A stretch of DNA of 64,000 nt from Anaerolineae bacterium (GTDB lineage: Bacteria > Chloroflexota > Anaerolineae > Aggregatilineales > Phototrophicaceae): assembly GCA_022825675.1 (NCBI GenBank), contig JAJDWK010000048.1:1-64000 (forward strand). Reading direction: 5' to 3'. Within the stretch, counting starts at the first letter, position 1, and every line of letters begins with the position of its first letter. This document shows, piece by piece, positions 6,421 through 56,598 of this stretch. The notes under the pieces were generated by a model. The model made no database searches. It was not told the DNA's origin and saw only the letters and a list, made by a program, of their open reading frames with translations. A program made the translations under genes and the position numbers.

Positions 6421-7620
6421 ATGGCGGAAAAGAATTGGCCCAGCAAAGTCATGTGGACAGGCGACTGTTTATACATCCTGCGCGGCATGAACTCGGGCAG
6501 CGTCGATCTGATTTATCTCGACCCGCCTTTCAACTCCAACACGGATTATGCCGCGCCGATTGGCAGCCAGGCGGCTGGCGCTGCGTTCAAAGATACTTGG
6601 ACCTTGACCGATCTCGATGTTGAGTGGATTAACCTTATTGAAGCGAGGCATGCAAGCCTGTATCGGGTACTGCTGGCAGCTGTGAGTCCCAGCGACAAGT
6701 CCTACCTGGTCTATATGGCGGCTCGCTTATTGGAATTGCGCCGTGTCTTAAAGCCAACGGGCAGCATCTATCTGCATTGCGACCCAACAATGAGCCACTA
6801 TCTCAAAATACTGATGGACACTATATTTGGACGGCAGAACTTCCGCAATGAAATCGTGTGGAGTTATCAACGCTGGACTGGCGCGGCGCGTCACTTCCAG
6901 CGCATGCATGATATTGTTTTGTTTTACGCTATGCCCGAGGCGACATTTAACCTATTAACCGAGCCGTATAGCCCTAAATCCAAACATAAACGAGCGAGGC
7001 GCAGCGCAGTAACTGAAGAAGGGAAACTTGAGCAGCAGTATACCGAAGACGACAGCAGGCAAAAGGCGATGCGGGATGTTTGGGAAATTTCCTATCTCAA
7101 TTCTCAAGCCAAAGAACGGGTCGGCTATCCTACGCAAAAACCCCTGGCGCTGCTTGACCGAATCATCAAAGCCAGCAGCCTGCCCGGCGACATCGTGCTC
7201 GACCCCTTCTGCGGCTGCGCTACGACCTGTGTTGCCGCCGATGATTTAGGGCGTGATTGGGTTGGCATCGATATTTCGCCCAAAGCCGCTGAATTAGTTG
7301 TGCGCCGCATCGCGGATAGGCAGGGGCTGTTCCGCGAGATAGTCCACCGCGAGGACATCCCCAAGCGCAGTGATTTGGGCAAGCTGCCACGCTACAACAG
7401 TATCGAAAACAAGCAGCGGCTATACGGCATGCAGGCAGGGGATTGCGCCGGCTGCGGGCAGCATTTTCACATGCGCAATTTCGAAGTGGATCACATCATT
7501 TCGCGCGTAAAAGGCGGAACAGACCATATCGAAAATTTGCAGCTGCTCTGCGGCGCTTGCAATCGTGTCAAAGGCAATCGCGGTATGGCTTATTTGCGGG
7601 CAAAATTGCAGCTCACCTAG
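6421..7620 (+). CDS. DNA methyltransferase (N4/N6, beta-type motif order) fused to C-terminal HNH endonuclease domain
   Basis: SVDLIYLDPPFNSN (motif IV) precedes DIVLDPFCGCATTCVAADDLGRDWVGIDI (motif I); C-terminus CAGCGQHFHMRNFEVDHIISRVKGGTDHIENLQLLCGACNRVKGNRG (HNH with CxxC pairs). Confidence 0.88.
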   Translation: MAEKNWPSKVMWTGDCLYILRGMNSGSVDLIYLDPPFNSNTDYAAPIGSQAAGAAFKDTWTLTDLDVEWINLIEARHASLYRVLLAAVSPSDKSYLVYMAARLLELRRVLKPTGSIYLHCDPTMSHYLKILMDTIFGRQNFRNEIVWSYQRWTGAARHFQRMHDIVLFYAMPEATFNLLTEPYSPKSKHKRARRSAVTEEGKLEQQYTEDDSRQKAMRDVWEISYLNSQAKERVGYPTQKPLALLDRIIKASSLPGDIVLDPFCGCATTCVAADDLGRDWVGIDISPKAAELVVRRIADRQGLFREIVHREDIPKRSDLGKLPRYNSIENKQRLYGMQAGDCAGCGQHFHMRNFEVDHIISRVKGGTDHIENLQLLCGACNRVKGNRGMAYLRAKLQLT

Positions 7621-25416: not shown

Positions 25417-25580
25417 GCGCCCATCCCCCTCATTTTGGCTGACGAGGGGACAGCTTTTTCTACCCCATCCCCAGCCCTTCCCCGTATCAACGGAGAAGGG
25501 TGACTCGTCGCTGAATCTGTGTGTTTGTTGGTGATATGGTTGCTACTGAACCGCTAATCCCAACTGCTTCTTTTGCGATT

Positions 25581-25608
25581 CCCCCTCTCTGATGATTCGG
25601 AGAGGGGG
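25581..25608. repeat. GC-rich hairpin repeat
   Basis: CCCCCTCTC-N10-GAGAGGGGG perfect 9-bp stem. Confidence 0.7.
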
Positions 25609-25656
25609 CTAGGGGCTGAGGTAGATGTACAGAAACGCGCGATTTCAAACATGTCT

Positions 25657-25685
25657 CCCCCCGCCCGCATTTTGCGGGAGGGGGA
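25657..25685. terminator. GC-rich hairpin directly after the solute-binding protein gene
   Basis: CCCCCCGCCCGCATTTTGCGGGAGGGGG: 6+5 bp stem with one mismatch, within 10 bp of the 3' end of the minus-strand SBP gene; no strong U-tract. Confidence 0.4.
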
Positions 25686-33717: not shown

Positions 33718-33980
33718 AGGGCAATCGCATCAAATTATGCTTCACCACAACAAGCCGAATTAAACGCAAATTTAACCACGGAGGACACCGAGATACACCG
33801 AGAAAAGCATGAGAAGCCTCTTTAATGCTTTTCTCGATGTCCTCATTTTCCCCTGTGCTCTCGGTGGTAAGGGCTGTGTTCAAACTACCCTGATAAATGA
33901 AGAAGCATAGAGCCATTTCAAGAAATAACTTTGTGTCCTTTGTGTCTTTGTGGTGAAGAATAATTTGATTCGATTGCCCT
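33718..33980. mobile_element. MITE-like element with ~30 bp terminal inverted repeats
   Basis: Left AGGGCAATCGCATCAAATTATGCTTCACCA (33718-33747); right TGGTGAAGAATAATTTGATTCGATTGCCCT (33951-33980), which reverse-complements to AGGGCAATCGAATCAAATTATTCTTCACCA. Confidence 0.7.
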
Positions 33981-47888: not shown

Positions 47889-49106
47889 TCACACGCACAG
47901 CCGCAGCGCGCTGGGACCGCGGAAGGAGATGTTGCGCGTGTACTCGAGCGCTTGCCCCGGTGCCAGCCGCAGCCCGGGCAGCTCCCGCGCCAGCGTCTCC
48001 AGCAGGAGTGTCATCTCCAGCCGCGCCAGCGGCGCGCCCACGCAATAATGTATGCCATAGCCAAAAGCCAACTGCTCCTTGAGCTTGCCGCGCTCGGGCA
48101 GGATTGTGTCCGGCTCGGGGAAGACCGCTTCATCCCGATTGGCGGAATTGAGCATCAGCAGCAGGTTGGCGCCCGCCGGGAGTGTAACGCCGCCGATGAC
48201 GCTGTCACGCGCCGCCAGCCGCCGCCAGGCGCAGACGGAAGGGTCATAACGCATCATCTCTTCCAGCGCTTGCGGGATGCCCGCGGGCGCGGCGCAGAGC
48301 CGCTCCCACAGCGCGCGCTGGCGCAGCAGATGCAGCAGGGCATTGTTGATTTGCGCGGTTGTCGTCTCGTGCCCGGCGACCAAGAGCGTAATCATGCAGC
48401 TGGCGATTTCGTTGAGGCTGATGACCGCGTCATCGCCAGCGCGCATGCGGATGAGATCGCTGGTGAGGTCGTCCTGCGGCGCCCGCGCCTTCTCGGCGAC
48501 CAGCGCCACCACATACTGCCAAAAGGGCAGCAGATTGCCTGTCAGCGCCAGCTGTTCATCGGCGCTGGGCATGCCGTAATAGAGCTTTATGCGGTTGCCC
48601 GCCCAGGCTTTGACCTGCGGCACATCCGCCGCTGGCACGCCCAGCACATGAAACAGCACATGAGCGGGATATTCGTAGGTCAATTCGGCGACGATATCGA
48701 ATGCCGCTTTCCCGCGCAGGCGCTCGACGCCGCGCTGGGCGATGGCGCGGATGGCGGGCGTGAAGCTCTTCATGCGGCGCGGCGTGAAGAGGCGGTTCAC
48801 CAGCGTGCGGATGCGCGTATGCTCGGGCGGCACATTGTTGGAGAGCACCGGCTGCGGGTTATAGCCGCCAGCGGCGAGCAGCTGGCGCACGGCATCCGAA
48901 AAAGGCAGCAGCGGGCTGATGGTATTGGCGGCGGTGTAGGTCTCGTGGTCGCGCAAAATCGCTTTGATGTCGGCATGGCGGGTGATGACCCAGTAGTCGA
49001 TGGCGGGGCTGTGGAAGATGGGCTGCTGGCGGCGGGCGGCGGCGAGCAGCGGGAAGGGGTCGCGCAGGTCGAGCGGGTCAAAGCTTTGGCTGAAGGGGCA
49101 GGGCAT
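47889..49106 (-). CDS. Cytochrome P450
   Basis: LAFGYGIHYCVGAPLARLEM haem-binding loop; LLVAGHETTTAQI I-helix; EEMMRYDPSVCAWRR. Confidence 0.95.
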   Translation of the reverse strand: MPCPFSQSFDPLDLRDPFPLLAAARRQQPIFHSPAIDYWVITRHADIKAILRDHETYTAANTISPLLPFSDAVRQLLAAGGYNPQPVLSNNVPPEHTRIRTLVNRLFTPRRMKSFTPAIRAIAQRGVERLRGKAAFDIVAELTYEYPAHVLFHVLGVPAADVPQVKAWAGNRIKLYYGMPSADEQLALTGNLLPFWQYVVALVAEKARAPQDDLTSDLIRMRAGDDAVISLNEIASCMITLLVAGHETTTAQINNALLHLLRQRALWERLCAAPAGIPQALEEMMRYDPSVCAWRRLAARDSVIGGVTLPAGANLLLMLNSANRDEAVFPEPDTILPERGKLKEQLAFGYGIHYCVGAPLARLEMTLLLETLARELPGLRLAPGQALEYTRNISFRGPSALRLCV

Positions 49107-49165: not shown

Positions 49166-49669
49166 TTGATGTTCACCGCTTTGAAAGACTTCGATTTTGC
49201 CTTGCTGGACTCGGGTGAATTCAAAGAAGATGCCGTGCGCGAAGAGATTGTCAGCCCCATTCTTAAAGAATTGGGCTATAGCGCCGGCGGCTTGAATCGC
49301 ATCGTGCGCAGCCGCTCGCTGAGCCACCCCTTTGTCAAAATCGGCTCACAGGAACGCCCGGTCACAATCATTCCCGACTATCTGCTGTTGGCGGCGAACA
49401 AGCCGGCGTGGATATTGGACGCCAAAGCGCCCGGCGAGCCCGTAACCAGCGGCGGGCATGTCGAGCAGGCATACAGCTACGCCATCCATCCCGACATCAA
49501 CAGCCGCTATTTCGCCCTTTGCAATGGTCGGGAATTTGCCCTGCGCCATGGCTCGCTCCTGGTTGCATTGGGAAGTTCAGTGATTAGAACTAATGTGGGG
49601 CGGGGTTGTCAAGGATTGCTACAGATGAATTCGACCACGGTGCGAAACGACTTGAATAGTCCGAAATAA
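49166..49669 (+). pseudogene. Truncated Type I restriction HsdR N-terminal (HSDR_N-like) fragment
   Basis: FKEDAVREEIVSPILKELGYSAGGLNRIVRSRSL...VTIIPDYLLLAANKPAWILDAKAPGEPVTSGGHVEQAYSYAIHPDINSRYFALCNGREFALRH; homology appears to stop near 49560 where composition shifts AT-rich. Confidence 0.65.
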
Positions 49670-49743
49670 ACGTGGTAGATTTACTGCGATGGAAAGGAAA
49701 CTATCTTATTGCTGTGTCACGTAAACGATTATGGAAGAAGTGA

Positions 49744-50271
49744 ATGTCTCTACCTGCCACTCACATGATGTCCTATCTGCAATATGCTTACGTAGACGCG
49801 GTTGTAGCGAGAGCAGGTGCTACATGTACTCCATACGCGAAGGACTACGGGCTTGATGCTCGTATCTCTCAAATTAAAGTACTGCCAGACGGAAGCCATA
49901 TAACTTCAGGAATCGGTTTTGATTGTCAGTTGAAAGCGACAACCGGATTGGTCGAGAAAGACAATCACTTCATCTTTAGACTAGGTATAAGAAACTATAA
50001 TATTTTGGCAGAGTTTCGAAAGACGTTAGGTATCTTGATAGTATTTAAAATGCCAAAGCAACCGGCCGACTGGTTGAGCCAGAGTGATGACATGCTGTGC
50101 CTAAGAGAATGTTGCTATTGGACGCAAATTCCTAATAAGCCCATTGAAGGCAAGTTAAAGCGCTCGAAGGTGCCTGTCAAGGTACCATACGGTCAGATAT
50201 TTGATGCAAACGCTGTTACTCAATTGCTGTCATACGCGAATGGTGGTGTTGGTGCAAGCTTAGGGGATTAA
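49744..50271 (+). CDS. DUF4365-like (PD-(D/E)XK-type) protein
   Basis: YAYVDAVVARAGATCTPYAKDYGLDARISQI...GIGFDCQLKATTGLV (D...QxK); AT-richer than surroundings. Confidence 0.55.
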   Translation: MSLPATHMMSYLQYAYVDAVVARAGATCTPYAKDYGLDARISQIKVLPDGSHITSGIGFDCQLKATTGLVEKDNHFIFRLGIRNYNILAEFRKTLGILIVFKMPKQPADWLSQSDDMLCLRECCYWTQIPNKPIEGKLKRSKVPVKVPYGQIFDANAVTQLLSYANGGVGASLGD

Positions 50272-50274
50272 ATC

Positions 50275-51396
50275 ATGCATTTCACTGACTATCACTTACC
50301 GCTTGAACAAATTACGTCGTATTTGAGATACGAGGGGTGGCAACTCGCGAATGAGAATTCTCATTGGCTGCTATTTGAAGCCTTTGAGGACATTGAAGGT
50401 AAGCCCTTGCAGATTGCACTCTATAGAGACCCTGAAGCGCCAGACTTCTCGTTGTCCGTATACCACAGTCTGCGCACTCTCACAGCCCTCAACAAGAAGA
50501 CTCCAGATTCAATTTTGCAAGATATCCTGACATTCAACCGTGATATACTCGAAGTTCGAGTTGATGATGCCGCAGATACAACTTCTGTTTCCATAGAAAA
50601 GGCTGCGAAACAGATCCACGAGCTCAAACAACTTGTACTTTATGGAGCAACCTCAGAACGAAGCCGCCGGCAACACTACGGCAATTGGTTGCCGAGTATT
50701 CGTCCAACTCTAGACGAATTTGCGTTTGGACATACAGTTGCTGGAAGTTTCGGCTTTCGACTAGAAGCCAAGCTCGTAGGCAATCAACCTTCAGACAAGC
50801 CTACGTTTCCCGGCTTTGAACCTAAACCTATGTCTAGATTCGTCATGGAACGGATTATGCGAGGACTCGCTGCCACCGAGCAGGCTGTGTCCGAAACTAA
50901 CACACGACCTCTCGTCGAAGGATATAGAATGGGATTCAATTCCAATATGTGTGAAGCAATTGCCAATATATCGCAAGACTTGACTAAACCAGTTCGGTAC
51001 AACATCAAGTGGTCGCGTGTGTTCGAAGTACCGGATGATCTAATGAATATACGGCAAATTGAAATACATGACGTACATCGCCGATACTTGGAGGCCGCGA
51101 GCAAAGAACTTGCGGCCCAGGAAACAACGTTTGCTACGATCAAGGGTGTCGTTCGGTCTCTAGATTCGAAAGGGAATCCGCGGAGCGACGATGTTGTCGA
51201 CCGTACTGTTAAGATTTACGGAGGCCCCCCAAGCGAATCTTGGCGGCAAATTCATCTTACGCTTGAGAAAGATGACTACCTTACAGCCATAAAAGCACAT
51301 GACGAATGGCTAACGATATCTGTCAGCGGTTACCTATCAAGGACCGGAACAAAGTGGTTGCTTCAAAAGCCGGAAGGATTTCAGATAATTCGGTAG
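50275..51396 (+). CDS. Uncharacterised 373-aa partner of the DUF4365-like gene
   Basis: 3 bp after the DUF4365-like gene; C-terminus TFATIKGVVRSLDSKGNP...WRQIHLTLEKDDYLTAIKAHDEWLTISVSGYLSRTGTKWLLQKPEGFQII suggests an OB-like beta-rich fold. Confidence 0.6.
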   Translation: MHFTDYHLPLEQITSYLRYEGWQLANENSHWLLFEAFEDIEGKPLQIALYRDPEAPDFSLSVYHSLRTLTALNKKTPDSILQDILTFNRDILEVRVDDAADTTSVSIEKAAKQIHELKQLVLYGATSERSRRQHYGNWLPSIRPTLDEFAFGHTVAGSFGFRLEAKLVGNQPSDKPTFPGFEPKPMSRFVMERIMRGLAATEQAVSETNTRPLVEGYRMGFNSNMCEAIANISQDLTKPVRYNIKWSRVFEVPDDLMNIRQIEIHDVHRRYLEAASKELAAQETTFATIKGVVRSLDSKGNPRSDDVVDRTVKIYGGPPSESWRQIHLTLEKDDYLTAIKAHDEWLTISVSGYLSRTGTKWLLQKPEGFQIIR

Positions 51397-51612
51397 TTGC
51401 CTGTGGTAAATAGAAACCATTAGTGCCTCTCGCATTTACAAGAACGTTCCGTCACTTCCTGAGCGTACTTATCGTCTAAAACTCAGGGCGCTCGGTGGTA
51501 AATCGTTCGGGCTCGCCCCTGCACTCCCCCCTCCGCGTCTCTATGGTGAAATCCCAGCCGCCGCGCTACAATAGCGCCCTAAATCTCACCCACCTGAACA
51601 AAGGACACCCTC

Positions 51613-54600
51613 ATGAGCAATTCCCCCTTCGCCGGACTGGCGCAATTCCGCAATATCGGTCCCTTCCGCGGCGGGCGCGTGGTCGCTGTCGCCGGCGACC
51701 GCCGTGACCCAAATACCTTCTACTTCGGCGGCGTCTGCGGCGGCGTCTGGAAGACCACCGACGCCGGCCTGTATTGGGAGAATATCAGCGACGGCTACTT
51801 CACGGCTTCTTCTGTCGGCGCGCTGGAAGTCGCCCCGGCCGACCCCAATGTCATCTATGCCGGCACCGGCGAAAGCACCATCCGCATCGATGTCTCCATC
51901 GGCGATGGCGTCTACAAATCCACCGATGCCGGGCGCAGCTGGCAGCATATCGGCTTGCGCGAGACGCGGCAAATCGCCAAAATCCGCAGCCACCCGCAGA
52001 ATGCTGACCTCGTGTATGTGGCGGCGCTGGGGCATGCCTTCGGCAAGAACGCGGAGCGCGGCGTCTACCGCTCGCAAGACGGCGGCGCGAATTGGGAGCT
52101 GGTCCTGCATGTCAGCGACAGCGCCGGCGCCATCGACATCAGCATTGACCCCAACAACCCGCGCGTGATTTACGCCGCCTTCTGGCAAGCCTATCGCAAT
52201 TTCTGGCAGATTTCTTCTGGCGGCGAGCACAGCGGCATCTGGCGCAGCATGGATGGCGGCGATACCTGGGAGCCGCTGACGCCCAGCCCCGATAAGCCCG
52301 CGGGGCGCAAGGGCTTGCCCGAAGGGCTGCTGGGCAAAATCGGCTTGGCGGCATCGCCCGCGCGCCCGGGACGGCTCTGGGCGATTATCGAGAACCAGCC
52401 CGATGGCGGCATCTACCGCAGCGACGATTATGGCGAGAGCTGGGTTGTCGGCAGCAAAGACAACCGCCTCATCAGCCGCGCCTGGTATTACATGCACCTG
52501 ACGGCTGACCCTGTCGCTGCTGATACGATATATGTCAACAATTTGAGCTTTTGGAAATCGACTGACGGCGGGCACAATTTCAGCGAAATCACAACGCCGC
52601 ATGGCGACAATCACGACCTGTGGGTCAACCCCGATAACCCGCGCATCCTGGTGCATGGCAATGATGGCGGCTGCTGCGTCTCGCTGAACGGCGGCGATTC
52701 CTGGTCCAGCCTCTACAATCAGCCGACAGCGCAGTTTTATCACCTCGATACCGACAGCCACGATCCCTATTATGTCTATGGTACGCAGCAGGACAATTCC
52801 AGCTTGCGCGTGCCCAGCCGCAGCCGCTATTCCTCCATCACCTGGGAAGATTGCGACATCATCGGCTCGGGCGAGAGTGGCTATATCGCCGTGCATCCCG
52901 ATGACCCGGATATTGTTTATGTCGGCGCTATCGGCAGCTCGCCCGGGGGCGGGAACAGTTTGCAGCGCTATAACCACCGCATCCAGCAGATACGGCTGGT
53001 GGCGACTTGGCCCCGCAGCTCGACCGGCTTGGGCGCGGGCGCGGACAAATACCGCTTCGCCTGGACTTATCCGATTGTCTTCTCGCCGCATGACAGCAAT
53101 GTGATTTACATCGGCGGCAACCAGATACTCAAAAGCGCGGACGAGGGGCAGAGCTGGCAAGAAATCAGCCCGGATTTGACACGAGCCGACCCCGAGACGC
53201 TCAAGCCTTCCGGCGGTCCCATCAACCGTGATGCCGTGGGCGCGGAGCATTATGCCACCGTGTATACCCTGGCGGAATCGCCGCAGGAGCCGGGCGTAAT
53301 CTGGGCGGGCTCGGACGATGGCTTGCTGCATATCACCCGTGATGGCGGCGAGTCCTGGGCGGATATCACGCCGCCGGACCTCGGCGACTGGACGATGTTC
53401 ACCATGATCGAACTCTCGCCGCATGACAAAGCCACCGCCTATGTAAGCGCCACCCGCTACAAAAATGACGATTACGCGCCTTATGTCTTCAAGACCAGCG
53501 ACTATGGCAAAAGCTGGACGGCTATAGTCGACGGCATCGCGGAGGACCATTATTGCCGCGTCATCCGTGAGGACCCGGCGCGTGAGGGGCTGCTCTACCT
53601 GGGCACAGAATTCGGCTTGTACCTTTCCCTTGATGCGGGTGGGCATTGGCAGCGCTTCCAGCTCAACTTGCCGATTTCGCCCATCTATGATTTGCAGCGC
53701 AAAGGCGCGGATTTGGTGGTGGCGACGCATGGGCGCGCCTTCTGGATACTGGACGATGTAGCGGCATTGCATCAGGTTCTTGCCCCCCATCCCCCAGCCC
53801 CTGCCCCCACTGGGGAGGGAAGGGGAGACAAAAGCCCCCGCCTGCTCGCCCCGAGCGTGGTCGAGCGGCATTTGCCCAAAGTCTTTGAGGGCATGTTTGA
53901 AGGCGGCGAGGGCAAGCAATACATGAGCACCCTGGGCATGGTCGCCGCCTATGTCATCGAAAAAACGCCCGAGCATGGCGTCAAGCACCGCTATCTTGAC
54001 AGCGGCACAAACCCGCCGCAGGGCGCTGTCCTGTGCTATTACCTGGCGGAAAAAGCGGAAGCGACCATCAGCCTGCGCATTGAGGACGCCGCCGGCGAAG
54101 AAGTCAAGAGCTTCAAGAGCCTGCACGCCGATAAAGAAGAGAAAGAGGCCGGGCTGCGGGATGACAAGACGCCCAAGGAACTGCGCATCCCGTCCGCGGC
54201 CGGCTGGAACCGCTTCGTCTGGGATTTGCGTTATGCCGATGCCCACAAGGTCGACCCGCCGACTGACCAGCAGCAGGGCTTCATCAAAGGACCGCATGCG
54301 CCCCCCGGCAGCTACCGCGCCATCTTGACCGTGGGCGATGCCCAAGCGAGCGCCAGCTTTGAGGTGAAAAAAGAAGCGGGCGTCGAAGCCACTGACGCTG
54401 ATTTACAGGCGCAATTCGCGCTGCTGCTCAGCATTCGTGACAAGCTCTCGGATACGCACAAACTCGTCAATCAAATGCGGGACGCGCGCGCACAGCTCAA
54501 AGGCTGGCGCGGGCGGCTGCAAGGCATGGAGACGGCGGCGGGCATCGTCGAAGCGGCGAAAGCGCTGGAAGAGCAGGTGCTGGAAGTCGAGAAAGAGCTG

Positions 54601-54864
54601 ATGATACCCGATACGCGCCAGGGCTGGCCCGATACCATGAACAATGGCGACCGCCTGGTGGCGCAGTTGAGCGGGCTCATCTTCAATGTCAACCTGGGCG
54701 ATTACAAGCCGACCGATTATGAAGTTGAAGCCTATCAAGAAATCGCCGCTGATATCGACGGCACCGCCGACAAGTTCAAGGAGATTGTCGACGGCAACCT
54801 GGCGGAGTTTAACACCATGCTGGGCAATGCCGGCTTCGGCAAGGTGGTGTTGAAGGTGGAATAG
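51613..54864 (+). CDS. BNR/sortilin-like beta-propeller 'glycosyl hydrolase'-annotated family protein
   Basis: FRGGRVVAVAGDRRDPNTFYFGGVCGGVWKTTDAGLYWENISDG; repeated VYKSTDAGRSWQHIG / GIYRSDDYGESWVVG BNR-like motifs. Confidence 0.88.
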   Translation: MSNSPFAGLAQFRNIGPFRGGRVVAVAGDRRDPNTFYFGGVCGGVWKTTDAGLYWENISDGYFTASSVGALEVAPADPNVIYAGTGESTIRIDVSIGDGVYKSTDAGRSWQHIGLRETRQIAKIRSHPQNADLVYVAALGHAFGKNAERGVYRSQDGGANWELVLHVSDSAGAIDISIDPNNPRVIYAAFWQAYRNFWQISSGGEHSGIWRSMDGGDTWEPLTPSPDKPAGRKGLPEGLLGKIGLAASPARPGRLWAIIENQPDGGIYRSDDYGESWVVGSKDNRLISRAWYYMHLTADPVAADTIYVNNLSFWKSTDGGHNFSEITTPHGDNHDLWVNPDNPRILVHGNDGGCCVSLNGGDSWSSLYNQPTAQFYHLDTDSHDPYYVYGTQQDNSSLRVPSRSRYSSITWEDCDIIGSGESGYIAVHPDDPDIVYVGAIGSSPGGGNSLQRYNHRIQQIRLVATWPRSSTGLGAGADKYRFAWTYPIVFSPHDSNVIYIGGNQILKSADEGQSWQEISPDLTRADPETLKPSGGPINRDAVGAEHYATVYTLAESPQEPGVIWAGSDDGLLHITRDGGESWADITPPDLGDWTMFTMIELSPHDKATAYVSATRYKNDDYAPYVFKTSDYGKSWTAIVDGIAEDHYCRVIREDPAREGLLYLGTEFGLYLSLDAGGHWQRFQLNLPISPIYDLQRKGADLVVATHGRAFWILDDVAALHQVLAPHPPAPAPTGEGRGDKSPRLLAPSVVERHLPKVFEGMFEGGEGKQYMSTLGMVAAYVIEKTPEHGVKHRYLDSGTNPPQGAVLCYYLAEKAEATISLRIEDAAGEEVKSFKSLHADKEEKEAGLRDDKTPKELRIPSAAGWNRFVWDLRYADAHKVDPPTDQQQGFIKGPHAPPGSYRAILTVGDAQASASFEVKKEAGVEATDADLQAQFALLLSIRDKLSDTHKLVNQMRDARAQLKGWRGRLQGMETAAGIVEAAKALEEQVLEVEKELMIPDTRQGWPDTMNNGDRLVAQLSGLIFNVNLGDYKPTDYEVEAYQEIAADIDGTADKFKEIVDGNLAEFNTMLGNAGFGKVVLKVE
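53781..53831. repeat. GC-rich intergenic-type repeat embedded in frame inside a CDS
   Basis: tgccccccatcccccagcccctgcccccactggggagggaaggggagaca; encodes LAPHPPAPAPTGEGRGDK between propeller and C-terminal region; resembles intergenic DNA at 25462-25500 and 25581-25690. Confidence 0.6.
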
Positions 54865-54878
54865 CGAGTTCCAAACCT

Positions 54879-55469
54879 CTAGGTATTCGTCCATATAGCC
54901 AGTTGGCGTCGCAAGCCGACTGGCTTTCCTTGCAAATGGCGAATATCACAAACTGCCCCAAATTCAAGGAAGTAGTCTTCGAATCGTTGGTAATCTTCGC
55001 CCCAGTACACAATTGCGCAGGCCATTGGGGCACCTTTGCCTCCAGTTCTTCCATTCACTAGAAACTTCAAACGGGTATCGTATAGAAATGCGATCGCGGC
55101 GGCAGCTCCAAATACATGAAGTTTCCAGTGCTTCGTGTTAGGCGCAACAGGTACTAAAGCTAGCACTTCAGAGCTGTGTTCTCGGTTAGCATAGGCCGCC
55201 ATCTTTAGCCAGTCTAGAATCGACGTGCCTCTTTCACGATCTCTACCGTAAGGAGGATTGATGAAAACTGTCGGGTAATTCCACGATGCTCTTAAGCCGT
55301 CTACATCGGGCAATGCATATTCCATTTCAGCATTTACAATTGAATAGCAATTTGAGCACGGGTCTAAAGCGATTGCACCGCCAAAAAACTCCCGAATTAC
55401 CGTTGCGTACTTTGGAGGAGTACACCAATGCTGGCTTAGAGATTCCGCGCTATTTCTTCCAGCAGTCAT
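54879..55469 (-). CDS. Phage-type DNA N6-adenine methyltransferase (Dam family)
   Basis: LSQHWCTPPKYATVIREFFGGAIALDPCSN; YPTVFINPPYGRDRERGTSILDWLKMA (NPPY). Confidence 0.85.
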   Translation of the reverse strand: MTAGRNSAESLSQHWCTPPKYATVIREFFGGAIALDPCSNCYSIVNAEMEYALPDVDGLRASWNYPTVFINPPYGRDRERGTSILDWLKMAAYANREHSSEVLALVPVAPNTKHWKLHVFGAAAAIAFLYDTRLKFLVNGRTGGKGAPMACAIVYWGEDYQRFEDYFLEFGAVCDIRHLQGKPVGLRRQLAIWTNT

Positions 55470-55482
55470 TTCAAAACAACCT

Positions 55483-56598
55483 TCAATAACCCTTTGACCT
55501 GAGCGCTTGCAGATCTTTCTTTAAGTTGAGTACAGAAACATTACTTGGAGCAATGACATTGAACCAAGCGTCAACAATAGATTTGCTACTTTCAAAAAAA
55601 TCTCGAAGCGCTTTATCTGCGGCAATGTCTATATTCACTTTGGTAAACCTATTTTTTCCAGACTTTCCCGAATAGCTCGCCCGAAAGGCTTTGCTTGCCG
55701 CATAGAACCTCGGGGTTGGGTTGATCAGAACGCTATCGATGAATTGATATAGCCCCTCATCGGTCAGGAACAACAGCCAGTCGTAAGATTGCGCCAATAC
55801 ATGAAGCTCCTTATTGTAATTTTCTGATGTAAACCAGTTCCCGTGATTACTCACAACCCCAACAGTCAGCATAAAATCTGGGAACTCAGATAGCGACGAC
55901 GCATCAATGATTTCCCGCAACAATCTCCGGTAAGGGGCTATGCGAAATGTACCGTCGATATTTTCAATTATGCCTTGAAAATCGCCATTCCGGCTTCTTA
56001 CTTTCTGTAGAGAGGACACAGACCTTGCTACATATGCACCCTGCTTCGCCTTTTCGATTGTCTGCGGGCCCTTCTTCATTCCTTCTTCTACACCTACGCG
56101 CTTACATTCGAAGATCGCGAACGGATCTCGAGAAAGTTCAACAATTGCGAGGCTACAATTGGTCTCTTCGAGATGGTCAACATGTGCCACGAGGGGACCC
56201 TGTTCTGCTTCAACAAGAACTGCGGCATTCCGCTTTATTCCATTTCGAGTAACGATTTGGTTCTGTTTCCAGGTTGAGCCCGGGAAATCACCAATTTGCT
56301 TTCGAATTTTTGCAGGTGTGACAGGCAGCGAGATTGGATTAATTTCTATTTCGCGCATATATCGAATGGGGTGGAGAGAAAACTCAACATTATGCACAAT
56401 TTCCGAATTTGCAAACTCAGGAAGTTTTCGCTCAATTACGAGATGATTGCGAAGACCCCATGAACAAAGCGTGTAATATGTCACTAGCTCAACGAGAGTT
56501 CCTAATGCCCGGCCCGCTGCCTTTTTGCTGTCCTTAGCATAGTGGAACACTGTGTTAGCAAGATTGTTTTGAAGCGCATCGACTGATTTGTAACCCAC
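55483..56598 (-). CDS. Putative Type II restriction endonuclease
   Basis: IVELSRDPFAIFECKRVGVEEGMKKGPQTIEKAKQGAYVARSVSSLQK (PD-(D/E)XK-like D...ECK); 13 bp upstream of the methyltransferase gene on the same strand; AT-rich. Confidence 0.7.
   Translation of the reverse strand: MGYKSVDALQNNLANTVFHYAKDSKKAAGRALGTLVELVTYYTLCSWGLRNHLVIERKLPEFANSEIVHNVEFSLHPIRYMREIEINPISLPVTPAKIRKQIGDFPGSTWKQNQIVTRNGIKRNAAVLVEAEQGPLVAHVDHLEETNCSLAIVELSRDPFAIFECKRVGVEEGMKKGPQTIEKAKQGAYVARSVSSLQKVRSRNGDFQGIIENIDGTFRIAPYRRLLREIIDASSLSEFPDFMLTVGVVSNHGNWFTSENYNKELHVLAQSYDWLLFLTDEGLYQFIDSVLINPTPRFYAASKAFRASYSGKSGKNRFTKVNIDIAADKALRDFFESSKSIVDAWFNVIAPSNVSVLNLKKDLQALRSKGY

What the first reader, a model, noticed from the sequence alone, without database searches (positions are those of the whole stretch)
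49166..51396. Candidate undescribed two-gene defence module (DUF4365-like nuclease + unknown OB-like partner) beside a truncated hsdR
Seen: an HSDR_N-like ORF loses its restriction-like sequence near 49560, composition turns AT-rich, and two tightly spaced genes follow (3 bp gap). The first has a DUF4365-like layout (GLDARI...GFDCQLKATTG, D-QxK). The second has no family I recognise but ends in a beta-rich OB-like segment. Established: DUF4365 belongs to the PD-(D/E)XK nuclease superfamily and HsdR neighbourhoods are defence-island hot spots. Inference: a mobile defence cassette replaced most of an R-M locus.
Basis: partly seen in the sequence, partly recalled or inferred. Interest (0 to 1): 0.72.

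Follow-up and report, generated by a model that had tools for sequence, protein, structure and literature searches.

The report
Nuclease-plus-OB-partner phage defence candidate pair
Two adjacent bacterial genes encode a predicted DNA-cutting enzyme and a partner likely to bind nucleic acid; the pair is already listed, untested, as candidate anti-virus system PDC-M02, and here it has truncated an older restriction-modification gene.

Summary
ORF 49166-49669 keeps only the first ~126 codons of an R-M gene that six congeners carry, five of them next to the same P450 gene; homology stops at 49527-49543 in all six. There GC falls to ~45% and two genes 3 bp apart follow. The pair is not undescribed: PADLOC-DB already lists both genes as 'phage defence candidate' PDC-M02A (E 4e-37) and PDC-M02B (E 6e-79). 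I found no functional study in the papers available. Gene A folds like the DUF4365/DREN nuclease of the Argonaute system SPARDA (Foldseek E 5.5e-7); its D38, Q62 and K64 are invariant in 50 of 50 relatives and correspond to SPARDA's catalytic D41/Q60/K62. Gene B ends in an OB fold of SSB/RPA type. A and B co-occur and co-diverge (42 distinct pairs, Mantel r 0.79). They ride plasmids and prophages and often sit beside R-M, Druantia, DRT or DUF262 genes. Cyanobacterial plasmids carry a ~180-aa mini-B (N-domain plus OB only). Best model: B senses phage nucleic acid and switches A on as a DNA-degrading effector, without Argonaute or guide. This is untested. The truncated gene was an HSDR_N-methyltransferase fusion, not a type I hsdR.

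The parts
47889..49106 (-). Cytochrome P450 gene; ancestral left neighbour of the R-M gene
   Evidence: Pfam p450 E 4e-29; same divergent arrangement with the HSDR_N gene in L037, L038, L040, L041, L042
49166..49669 (+). 5' remnant (codons 1-~126) of an HSDR_N-methyltransferase R-M gene; the tail after ~49543 is unrelated read-through
   Evidence: 74-90% aa identity to six congeners over residues 1-125; homology ends at 49527-49543; no remainder of the methyltransferase beside it
49543..51543 (.). AT-rich PDC-M02 island (outer limits by loss of congener homology on each side); no terminal direct repeat linking the two ends was found
49744..50271 (+). Gene A, PDC-M02A: DUF4365/DREN-type PD-(D/E)XK nuclease, predicted DNase effector
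   Evidence: PADLOC PDC-M02A E 4e-37; Pfam DUF4365; model pLDDT 83.7; Foldseek SPARDA DREN E 5.5e-7
49855..49935 (+). Predicted active site of A: D38 (49855-49857), Q62 (49927-49929), K64 (49933-49935)
   Evidence: each invariant in 50/50 homologues; equivalent by position in the fold to NbaSPARDA D41/Q60/K62 (PMC12205087)
50275..51396 (+). Gene B, PDC-M02B: partner / putative sensor, 373 aa
   Evidence: PADLOC PDC-M02B E 6e-79; no Pfam family; model pLDDT 84.7
50275..50535 (+). B N-terminal domain (residues 1-87), retained in mini-B
   Evidence: mini-B of L135/L140 matches profile positions 3/5-87
50536..51126 (+). B middle region (about residues 88-284) with conserved HTxxGSF and GxNANMC-type motifs; absent from cyanobacterial mini-B
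   Evidence: alignments A5, A7
51127..51390 (+). B C-terminal OB fold (about residues 285-372)
   Evidence: five strands plus one helix in the model; Foldseek RPA32/SSB, probability ~1, best E 7e-3
51613..54864 (+). Right-hand flanking gene (beta-propeller/sialidase-like by eye, not tested), vertically inherited in the genus
   Evidence: matches in 34/34 genus genomes, closest 80-87% identical; homology starts at 51514-51643 depending on the congener

Best explanation
The two genes are an intact PDC-M02 pair: a mobile anti-phage or anti-plasmid module. A is a stand-alone DREN/DUF4365 nuclease that cuts DNA with a metal-dependent D38/Q62/K64 site. B binds A and a nucleic-acid cue, through its OB fold and probably its middle domain, and so controls when or where A cuts. 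It would take the place that APAZ plus short Argonaute hold in SPARDA. The outcome would be destruction of invading DNA, or general DNA degradation with death or dormancy of the infected cell. Here the cassette lies where an HSDR_N-methyltransferase R-M gene has been cut off after codon ~126. Shown: sequence membership, predicted fold, invariant active site, co-occurrence and co-divergence, mobile and defence contexts, truncation. Inferred: nuclease activity, A-B binding, the trigger and the outcome.
For: PADLOC models for both genes. A folds as the SPARDA DREN nuclease, E 5.5e-7, TM 0.61, then Hjc; its QxK site matches residues whose Q62A/K64A change was used as the inactive mutant in TmuRE (PMC10810196) and D41/Q60/K62 in NbaSPARDA, where D41 and Q60 hold Mg (PMC12205087). 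D38/Q62/K64 are invariant in 50/50. B ends in an OB fold of the SSB/RPA type. 42 distinct intact pairs, mostly with a 4-bp overlap; distance matrices correlate at r 0.79, 0/2000 permutations. Carried on plasmids, Leptospira phage LE1 and M. abscessus prophages. Neighbours: HsdS-DRT4-A-B-HsdR (L027) and DruH3 (L005), both; type IIG R-M (L008; L121, L123, L132); methyltransferases (L127, L131); two DUF262 genes (L138).
Against: No experiment on PDC-M02 was found in the papers available. Defence neighbours were counted without a matched control. A is not detectably related to SPARDA by PDB sequence search; the link is fold plus motif plus shared Pfam family. No A-B interaction was modelled (only single chains could be folded). 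OB hits are short and weak in E-value, and OB folds also mediate protein contacts. The window copy has S10 where 40/50 homologues have E and most of the rest Q, so it could be impaired.
Confidence: 0.62

Rival explanations
1. Type IV-like or direct restriction: B reads a feature of foreign DNA (modified base, structure or end) with its middle domain and brings A to cut that molecule only; no cell suicide.
For: Frequent company of R-M genes; A is a classical restriction-type fold; the middle domain of B is a conserved, removable module, as expected of a reader domain.
Against: Mini-B pairs lack that domain yet persist in cyanobacterial plasmids; no known modified-base reader fold was found in B; no methyltransferase travels consistently with the pair.
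Confidence: 0.2
2. Toxin-antitoxin module: A is a toxin nuclease neutralised by B.
For: Two-gene operon with overlapping reading frames (34 of 52 pairs overlap by 4 bp); carried on plasmids.
Against: In G417 (L132) A is intact while B has lost its middle and has stops, and in L096 and L100 B is intact while A is decayed; loss of either partner is tolerated. B is twice the size of A and multi-domain, and the nuclease comes first.
Confidence: 0.1
3. DNA repair or recombination pair (Holliday-junction-resolvase-like A with an SSB-like B), not defence.
For: Hjc is the second structural match of A; B has an SSB/RPA-like OB fold.
Against: Patchy presence (9/400 in the phylum sample, 13/298 in the class sample, 13/34 in the genus), location on plasmids and prophages, island composition and defence neighbours do not fit housekeeping; the active site is D-QxK as in DREN.
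Confidence: 0.05
4. The window copy is a degenerate relic whose nuclease is inactive (S10), kept by chance.
For: S10 replaces a helix-1 position that is E in 40/50 and Q in most others; A is lost in some relatives.
Against: Both frames are open and full length; D38/Q62/K64 are intact; another congener (G411) has P at this position with an intact pair; the published DREN site is D, Q and K (PMC12205087).
Confidence: 0.1

Closest known systems
PADLOC PDC-M02 (phage defence candidate, multi-gene 02)
   Same: Both genes hit its A and B models end to end, adjacent and in the same order.
   Different: No difference of kind. This locus adds a fold and active-site assignment, a short-B variant and a hotspot; PADLOC gives no function.
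SPARDA (short prokaryotic Argonaute with DREN/DUF4365-APAZ)
   Same: Same nuclease fold and catalytic D/Q/K; two-gene operon with the nuclease gene upstream, as in TmuRE-Ago.
   Different: A has no APAZ domain (175 aa) and B is not a MID-PIWI Argonaute; any activation must be guide-independent.
DUF6575 proteins (one is a component of an experimentally selected E. coli PD defence system; PMC9519451)
   Same: Foldseek match of B to a phage DUF6575 protein over nearly its whole length, E 1.2e-7, probability 1.0.
   Different: TM 0.33, 10% identity, no Pfam DUF6575 match to B or its homologues; related domains perhaps, not the same family on this evidence.
Archaeal Holliday junction resolvase Hjc
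   Same: PD-(D/E)XK fold, TM (target) ~0.64.
   Different: A carries QxK rather than ExK, has a longer C-terminal part and a dedicated partner.

Membership tests
PADLOC PDC-M02 | A gene matches PDC-M02A models | tested here: met
   best E 4e-37, residues 5-166 of 175
PADLOC PDC-M02 | B gene matches PDC-M02B models and is adjacent | tested here: met
   best E 6e-79, residues 7-371 of 373; 3-bp gap
PADLOC PDC-M02 | Confers phage resistance | not testable with these tools
   listed as a candidate; no functional report found
DUF4365 / DREN nuclease | Pfam PF14280 above cut-off | tested here: met
   49.1 bits against 24.3; 12/12 members of A8 match
DUF4365 / DREN nuclease | Fold with D, Q-x-K active site at equivalent positions | tested here: met
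   coordinates could not be superposed residue by residue, equivalence is by secondary structure and motif
SPARDA | Nuclease fused to APAZ | tested here: not met
   A is 175 aa, nuclease fold only
SPARDA | Short pAgo (MID-PIWI) partner | tested here: not met
   B has no Argonaute match by sequence or fold
OB-fold nucleic-acid-binding protein | Five-strand OB barrel with SSB/RPA-like topology | tested here: met
   (predicted structure only)
OB-fold nucleic-acid-binding protein | Binds nucleic acid | not testable with these tools
   needs a binding experiment
DUF6575 | Pfam DUF6575 match | tested here: not met
   no match for B or 11 homologues; structural similarity only
Type I R-M HsdR (for ORF 49166-49669) | HSDR_N domain above Pfam cut-off | tested here: not met
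   22.5 bits against cut-off 25.1
Type I R-M HsdR (for ORF 49166-49669) | Helicase motor after the HSDR_N domain in intact relatives | tested here: not met
   intact relative L041 continues into a DNA methyltransferase
Toxin-antitoxin | Toxin never kept without its antidote | tested here: not met
   A intact with B decayed in L132; a single case

The most novel reading that the evidence does not exclude
PDC-M02 is an Argonaute-free branch of DREN immunity: an OB-fold partner, reducible to a ~180-aa two-domain mini-B, senses phage nucleic acid or phage replication and switches on a DUF4365 nuclease without guide RNA. The removable middle domain of B sets the trigger specificity, which would explain the divergent alleles found at one conserved chromosomal site.
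Probability: 0.35. Interest if true: 0.68.

Novelty: new member of a known kind. Interest (0 to 1): 0.45.

Why it matters
PDC-M02 is a widespread, catalogued but, as far as I could find, untested candidate (here in Chloroflexota, alphaproteobacterial, betaproteobacterial, clostridial, actinobacterial, spirochaete, bdellovibrio-group and cyanobacterial records). Identifying A as a DREN-type nuclease with a defined D/Q/K site, B as an OB-fold partner and mini-B as a natural minimal version makes the mechanism directly testable. It would also show that the effector nuclease of SPARDA can be driven by a non-Argonaute sensor.

Tried and rejected
'Undescribed module' was rejected after the PADLOC hit. 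'Truncated type I hsdR' was rejected: intact congener genes continue into a methyltransferase. SPARDA membership was rejected for lack of APAZ and Argonaute. Profile searches of A and B against PDB sequences found nothing useful. Single-protein and very diverse alignment scans of genome contigs failed or found nothing; a scan with a tighter alignment worked. A scan of viral contigs with the A alignment found nothing confirmed. No repeats link the two island ends. A strict toxin-antitoxin reading was disfavoured by decayed partners. Literature searches for PDC-M02 gave no hit; the PADLOC candidates preprint (bioRxiv 2024.01.29.577857) is cited by papers read here but is not in the library, so it was not read.

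Full report
WHAT IS THERE. The three ORFs, the 3-bp gap and the composition change are real. The genome is a 3.66-Mb, 106-contig draft with the window on contig C24. Two congener contigs returned by the named collection have the same lengths as G412:C29 and G420:C1 and are titled Anaerolineae/Chloroflexi MAGs, so the host is a Chloroflexota bacterium.

THE LEFT NEIGHBOUR. ORF 49166-49669 matches HSDR_N only weakly, but residues 1-125 are 74-90% identical to one gene in six congeners. In five of them it stands divergent to the same P450 gene, and nucleotide homology stops at 49527-49543 in all six. In congener G401 the intact gene is a 760-codon open frame: HSDR_N domain, then a methyltransferase with DPFAGTG and TDPPYG motifs and PADLOC type II methyltransferase hits. 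In three others an (AC)13-22 tract, and in a fourth a C9 run, lies between the two domains; in those where I read the frame (L037, L038, L039) it breaks there. This looks like a phase-variable R-M gene or one decaying at a repeat. No trace of the methyltransferase follows in the window. So the gene has lost everything after codon ~126.

THE RIGHT SIDE. Homology to congeners resumes at about 51514-51600, just before the beta-propeller-type gene at 51613. In the congener regions examined this gene is not beside the P450/R-M locus, so the island lies at a rearrangement breakpoint. Insertion, or insertion plus rearrangement, cannot be told apart, and a draft-assembly join cannot be excluded without reads. 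No repeats linking the two ends were found.

THE PAIR IS CATALOGUED. 49744-50271 hits 23 PADLOC PDC-M02A models (best E 4e-37) and Pfam DUF4365; 50275-51396 hits PDC-M02B models (best E 6e-79), nothing in Pfam and only sub-threshold noise in NCBIfam. Phage protein families also exist for A (phrog_27905, E 2e-13) and weakly for B (phrog_27927, E 1e-3). The finding's word 'undescribed' is therefore wrong at the level of catalogues; I found no paper text on the function of PDC-M02.

CO-OCCURRENCE. The B loci fetched from plasmids, phages, viral contigs and relatives' genomes were inspected; A lies directly upstream in nearly all, usually with a 4-bp overlap. Among 42 distinct intact pairs, A and B distances correlate at r 0.79 (0 of 2000 permutations as high). 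Exceptions are informative: B kept with a decayed A (L096, L100), A displaced by a transposase fragment (L006), and A kept with a broken B (L132). Loss of either partner is tolerated, which argues against a simple addiction module.

MOBILITY AND DEFENCE CONTEXT. The pair is found on plasmids of Alphaproteobacteria, Clostridia, Actinobacteria and others, in Leptospira phage LE1 beside a type IIG R-M gene, and near the left end of M. abscessus prophages. Other settings: HsdS-DRT4-A-B-HsdR (L027) and DruH3 of Druantia (L005), type IIG R-M genes (L121, L123, L132), methyltransferases (L127, L131) and two DUF262 genes (L138). I did not run a matched control for this enrichment. In the genus, 13 of 34 genomes have B, against 13 of 298 in the class and 9 of 400 in the phylum samples (the samples include the window's own genome).

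A SECOND COPY AND A HOTSPOT. The same genome has another pair on C82 (46% identical A). It lies between genes recognisable by eye as dihydroxy-acid dehydratase and ADP-ribosylglycohydrolase, and the same site holds a pair in G412, G420, G401, G416, G410, G431 and, decayed, G417; G407 has it beside the dehydratase. G421 has the two flanks only ~0.5-0.6 kb apart and no B, an empty site. Flanking dehydratases are 82-93% identical among four of these genomes while A is 31-76% and B 59-82%, so alleles turn over faster than the flanks. In G416 versus G407, B is 82% but A only 39% identical, which suggests that A can be exchanged.

STRUCTURE AND MECHANISM. A (pLDDT 84) has helix-1, three strands, helix-2 and a further strand, the DREN order, and its best PDB matches are twelve SPARDA chains (E 5.5e-7 to 3e-4), then Hjc. 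D38, Q62 and K64 are invariant in 50 of 50. NbaSPARDA uses D41, Q60 and K62, with D41 and Q60 on Mg (PMC12205087); TmuRE Q62A/K64A was used as the inactive mutant and the complex degrades DNA nonspecifically once activated (PMC10810196). B (pLDDT 85) has an N-terminal alpha/beta domain, a middle region with HTxxGSF and NANMC-type motifs, and a C-terminal OB fold matching RPA32 and SSB. A near-full-length structural match to a phage DUF6575 protein (E 1.2e-7 but TM 0.33) links B loosely to a domain present in an experimentally selected E. coli defence system (PMC9519451). By analogy with SPARDA, where the nuclease domain is activated by assembly, I infer that B holds, recruits or assembles A and responds to a nucleic-acid cue. 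That step, the trigger, and the choice between targeted restriction and abortive DNA degradation are inference.

MINI-B. Seventeen cyanobacterial plasmid records encode a ~173-180-aa protein matching the mini-B query over 98-100% of its length (40-100% identity), most of them visibly next to or overlapping a DUF4365 gene. In the two examined it matches only the N-domain and the OB domain of B, joined directly (L135, L140). PADLOC models still recognise it in two pieces. This natural short form defines a minimal partner and marks the middle domain as an optional module.

VERDICT. A correct and well-read observation of a known candidate system, with an intact nuclease site. The interest lies in its untested mechanism, the mini-B and the allele-diverse hotspot rather than in a new kind of locus. 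Caution: the window's A has S10 where homologues have E (40/50) or mostly Q, so experiments should include the C82 copy.

Noticed in passing
window 54879-56598: A second AT-rich island: a phage-type Dam-like methyltransferase (54879-55469, Pfam Dam E 9e-12) next to a 371-aa protein with a weak type II restriction enzyme match (55483-56598, E 3e-4). The same two genes follow the same gene in congener G420 (L081) at 70-71% identity. Likely a type II R-M pair.
   Followed up: partly
L037, L038, L040 (and L039): In congeners the HSDR_N-methyltransferase gene carries an (AC)13-22 tract, or a C9 run in L039, between nuclease and methyltransferase domains, with a broken frame; a candidate phase-variable R-M switch.
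   Followed up: partly
L135:3974-4501, L140:3956-4498 and 15 further plasmid records: Mini-B: N-domain plus OB domain only, beside DUF4365 A genes in Nostoc, Tolypothrix and Calothrix plasmids.
   Followed up: yes
G000:C82:9222-10840 (L002, L028, L134): Second PDC-M02 pair in the same genome, at a chromosomal site used by divergent PDC-M02 alleles in eight other congeners and empty in G421.
   Followed up: yes
L126 versus L127: At the same site B is 82% but A only 39% identical between two congeners, suggesting exchange of the nuclease gene under a retained partner.
   Followed up: no
L027:5432-13859: PDC-M02 and a DRT4 reverse transcriptase gene nested together between HsdS and HsdR of a type I R-M operon.
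   Followed up: no
window 6421-7620: Type II DNA methyltransferase gene (PADLOC MTase_II E 5e-67).
   Followed up: no
window 25437-25666 and 33771-33980: Stretches of about 210-230 bp that are 88-90% identical to stretches of contig C82; unidentified dispersed repeats.
   Followed up: no
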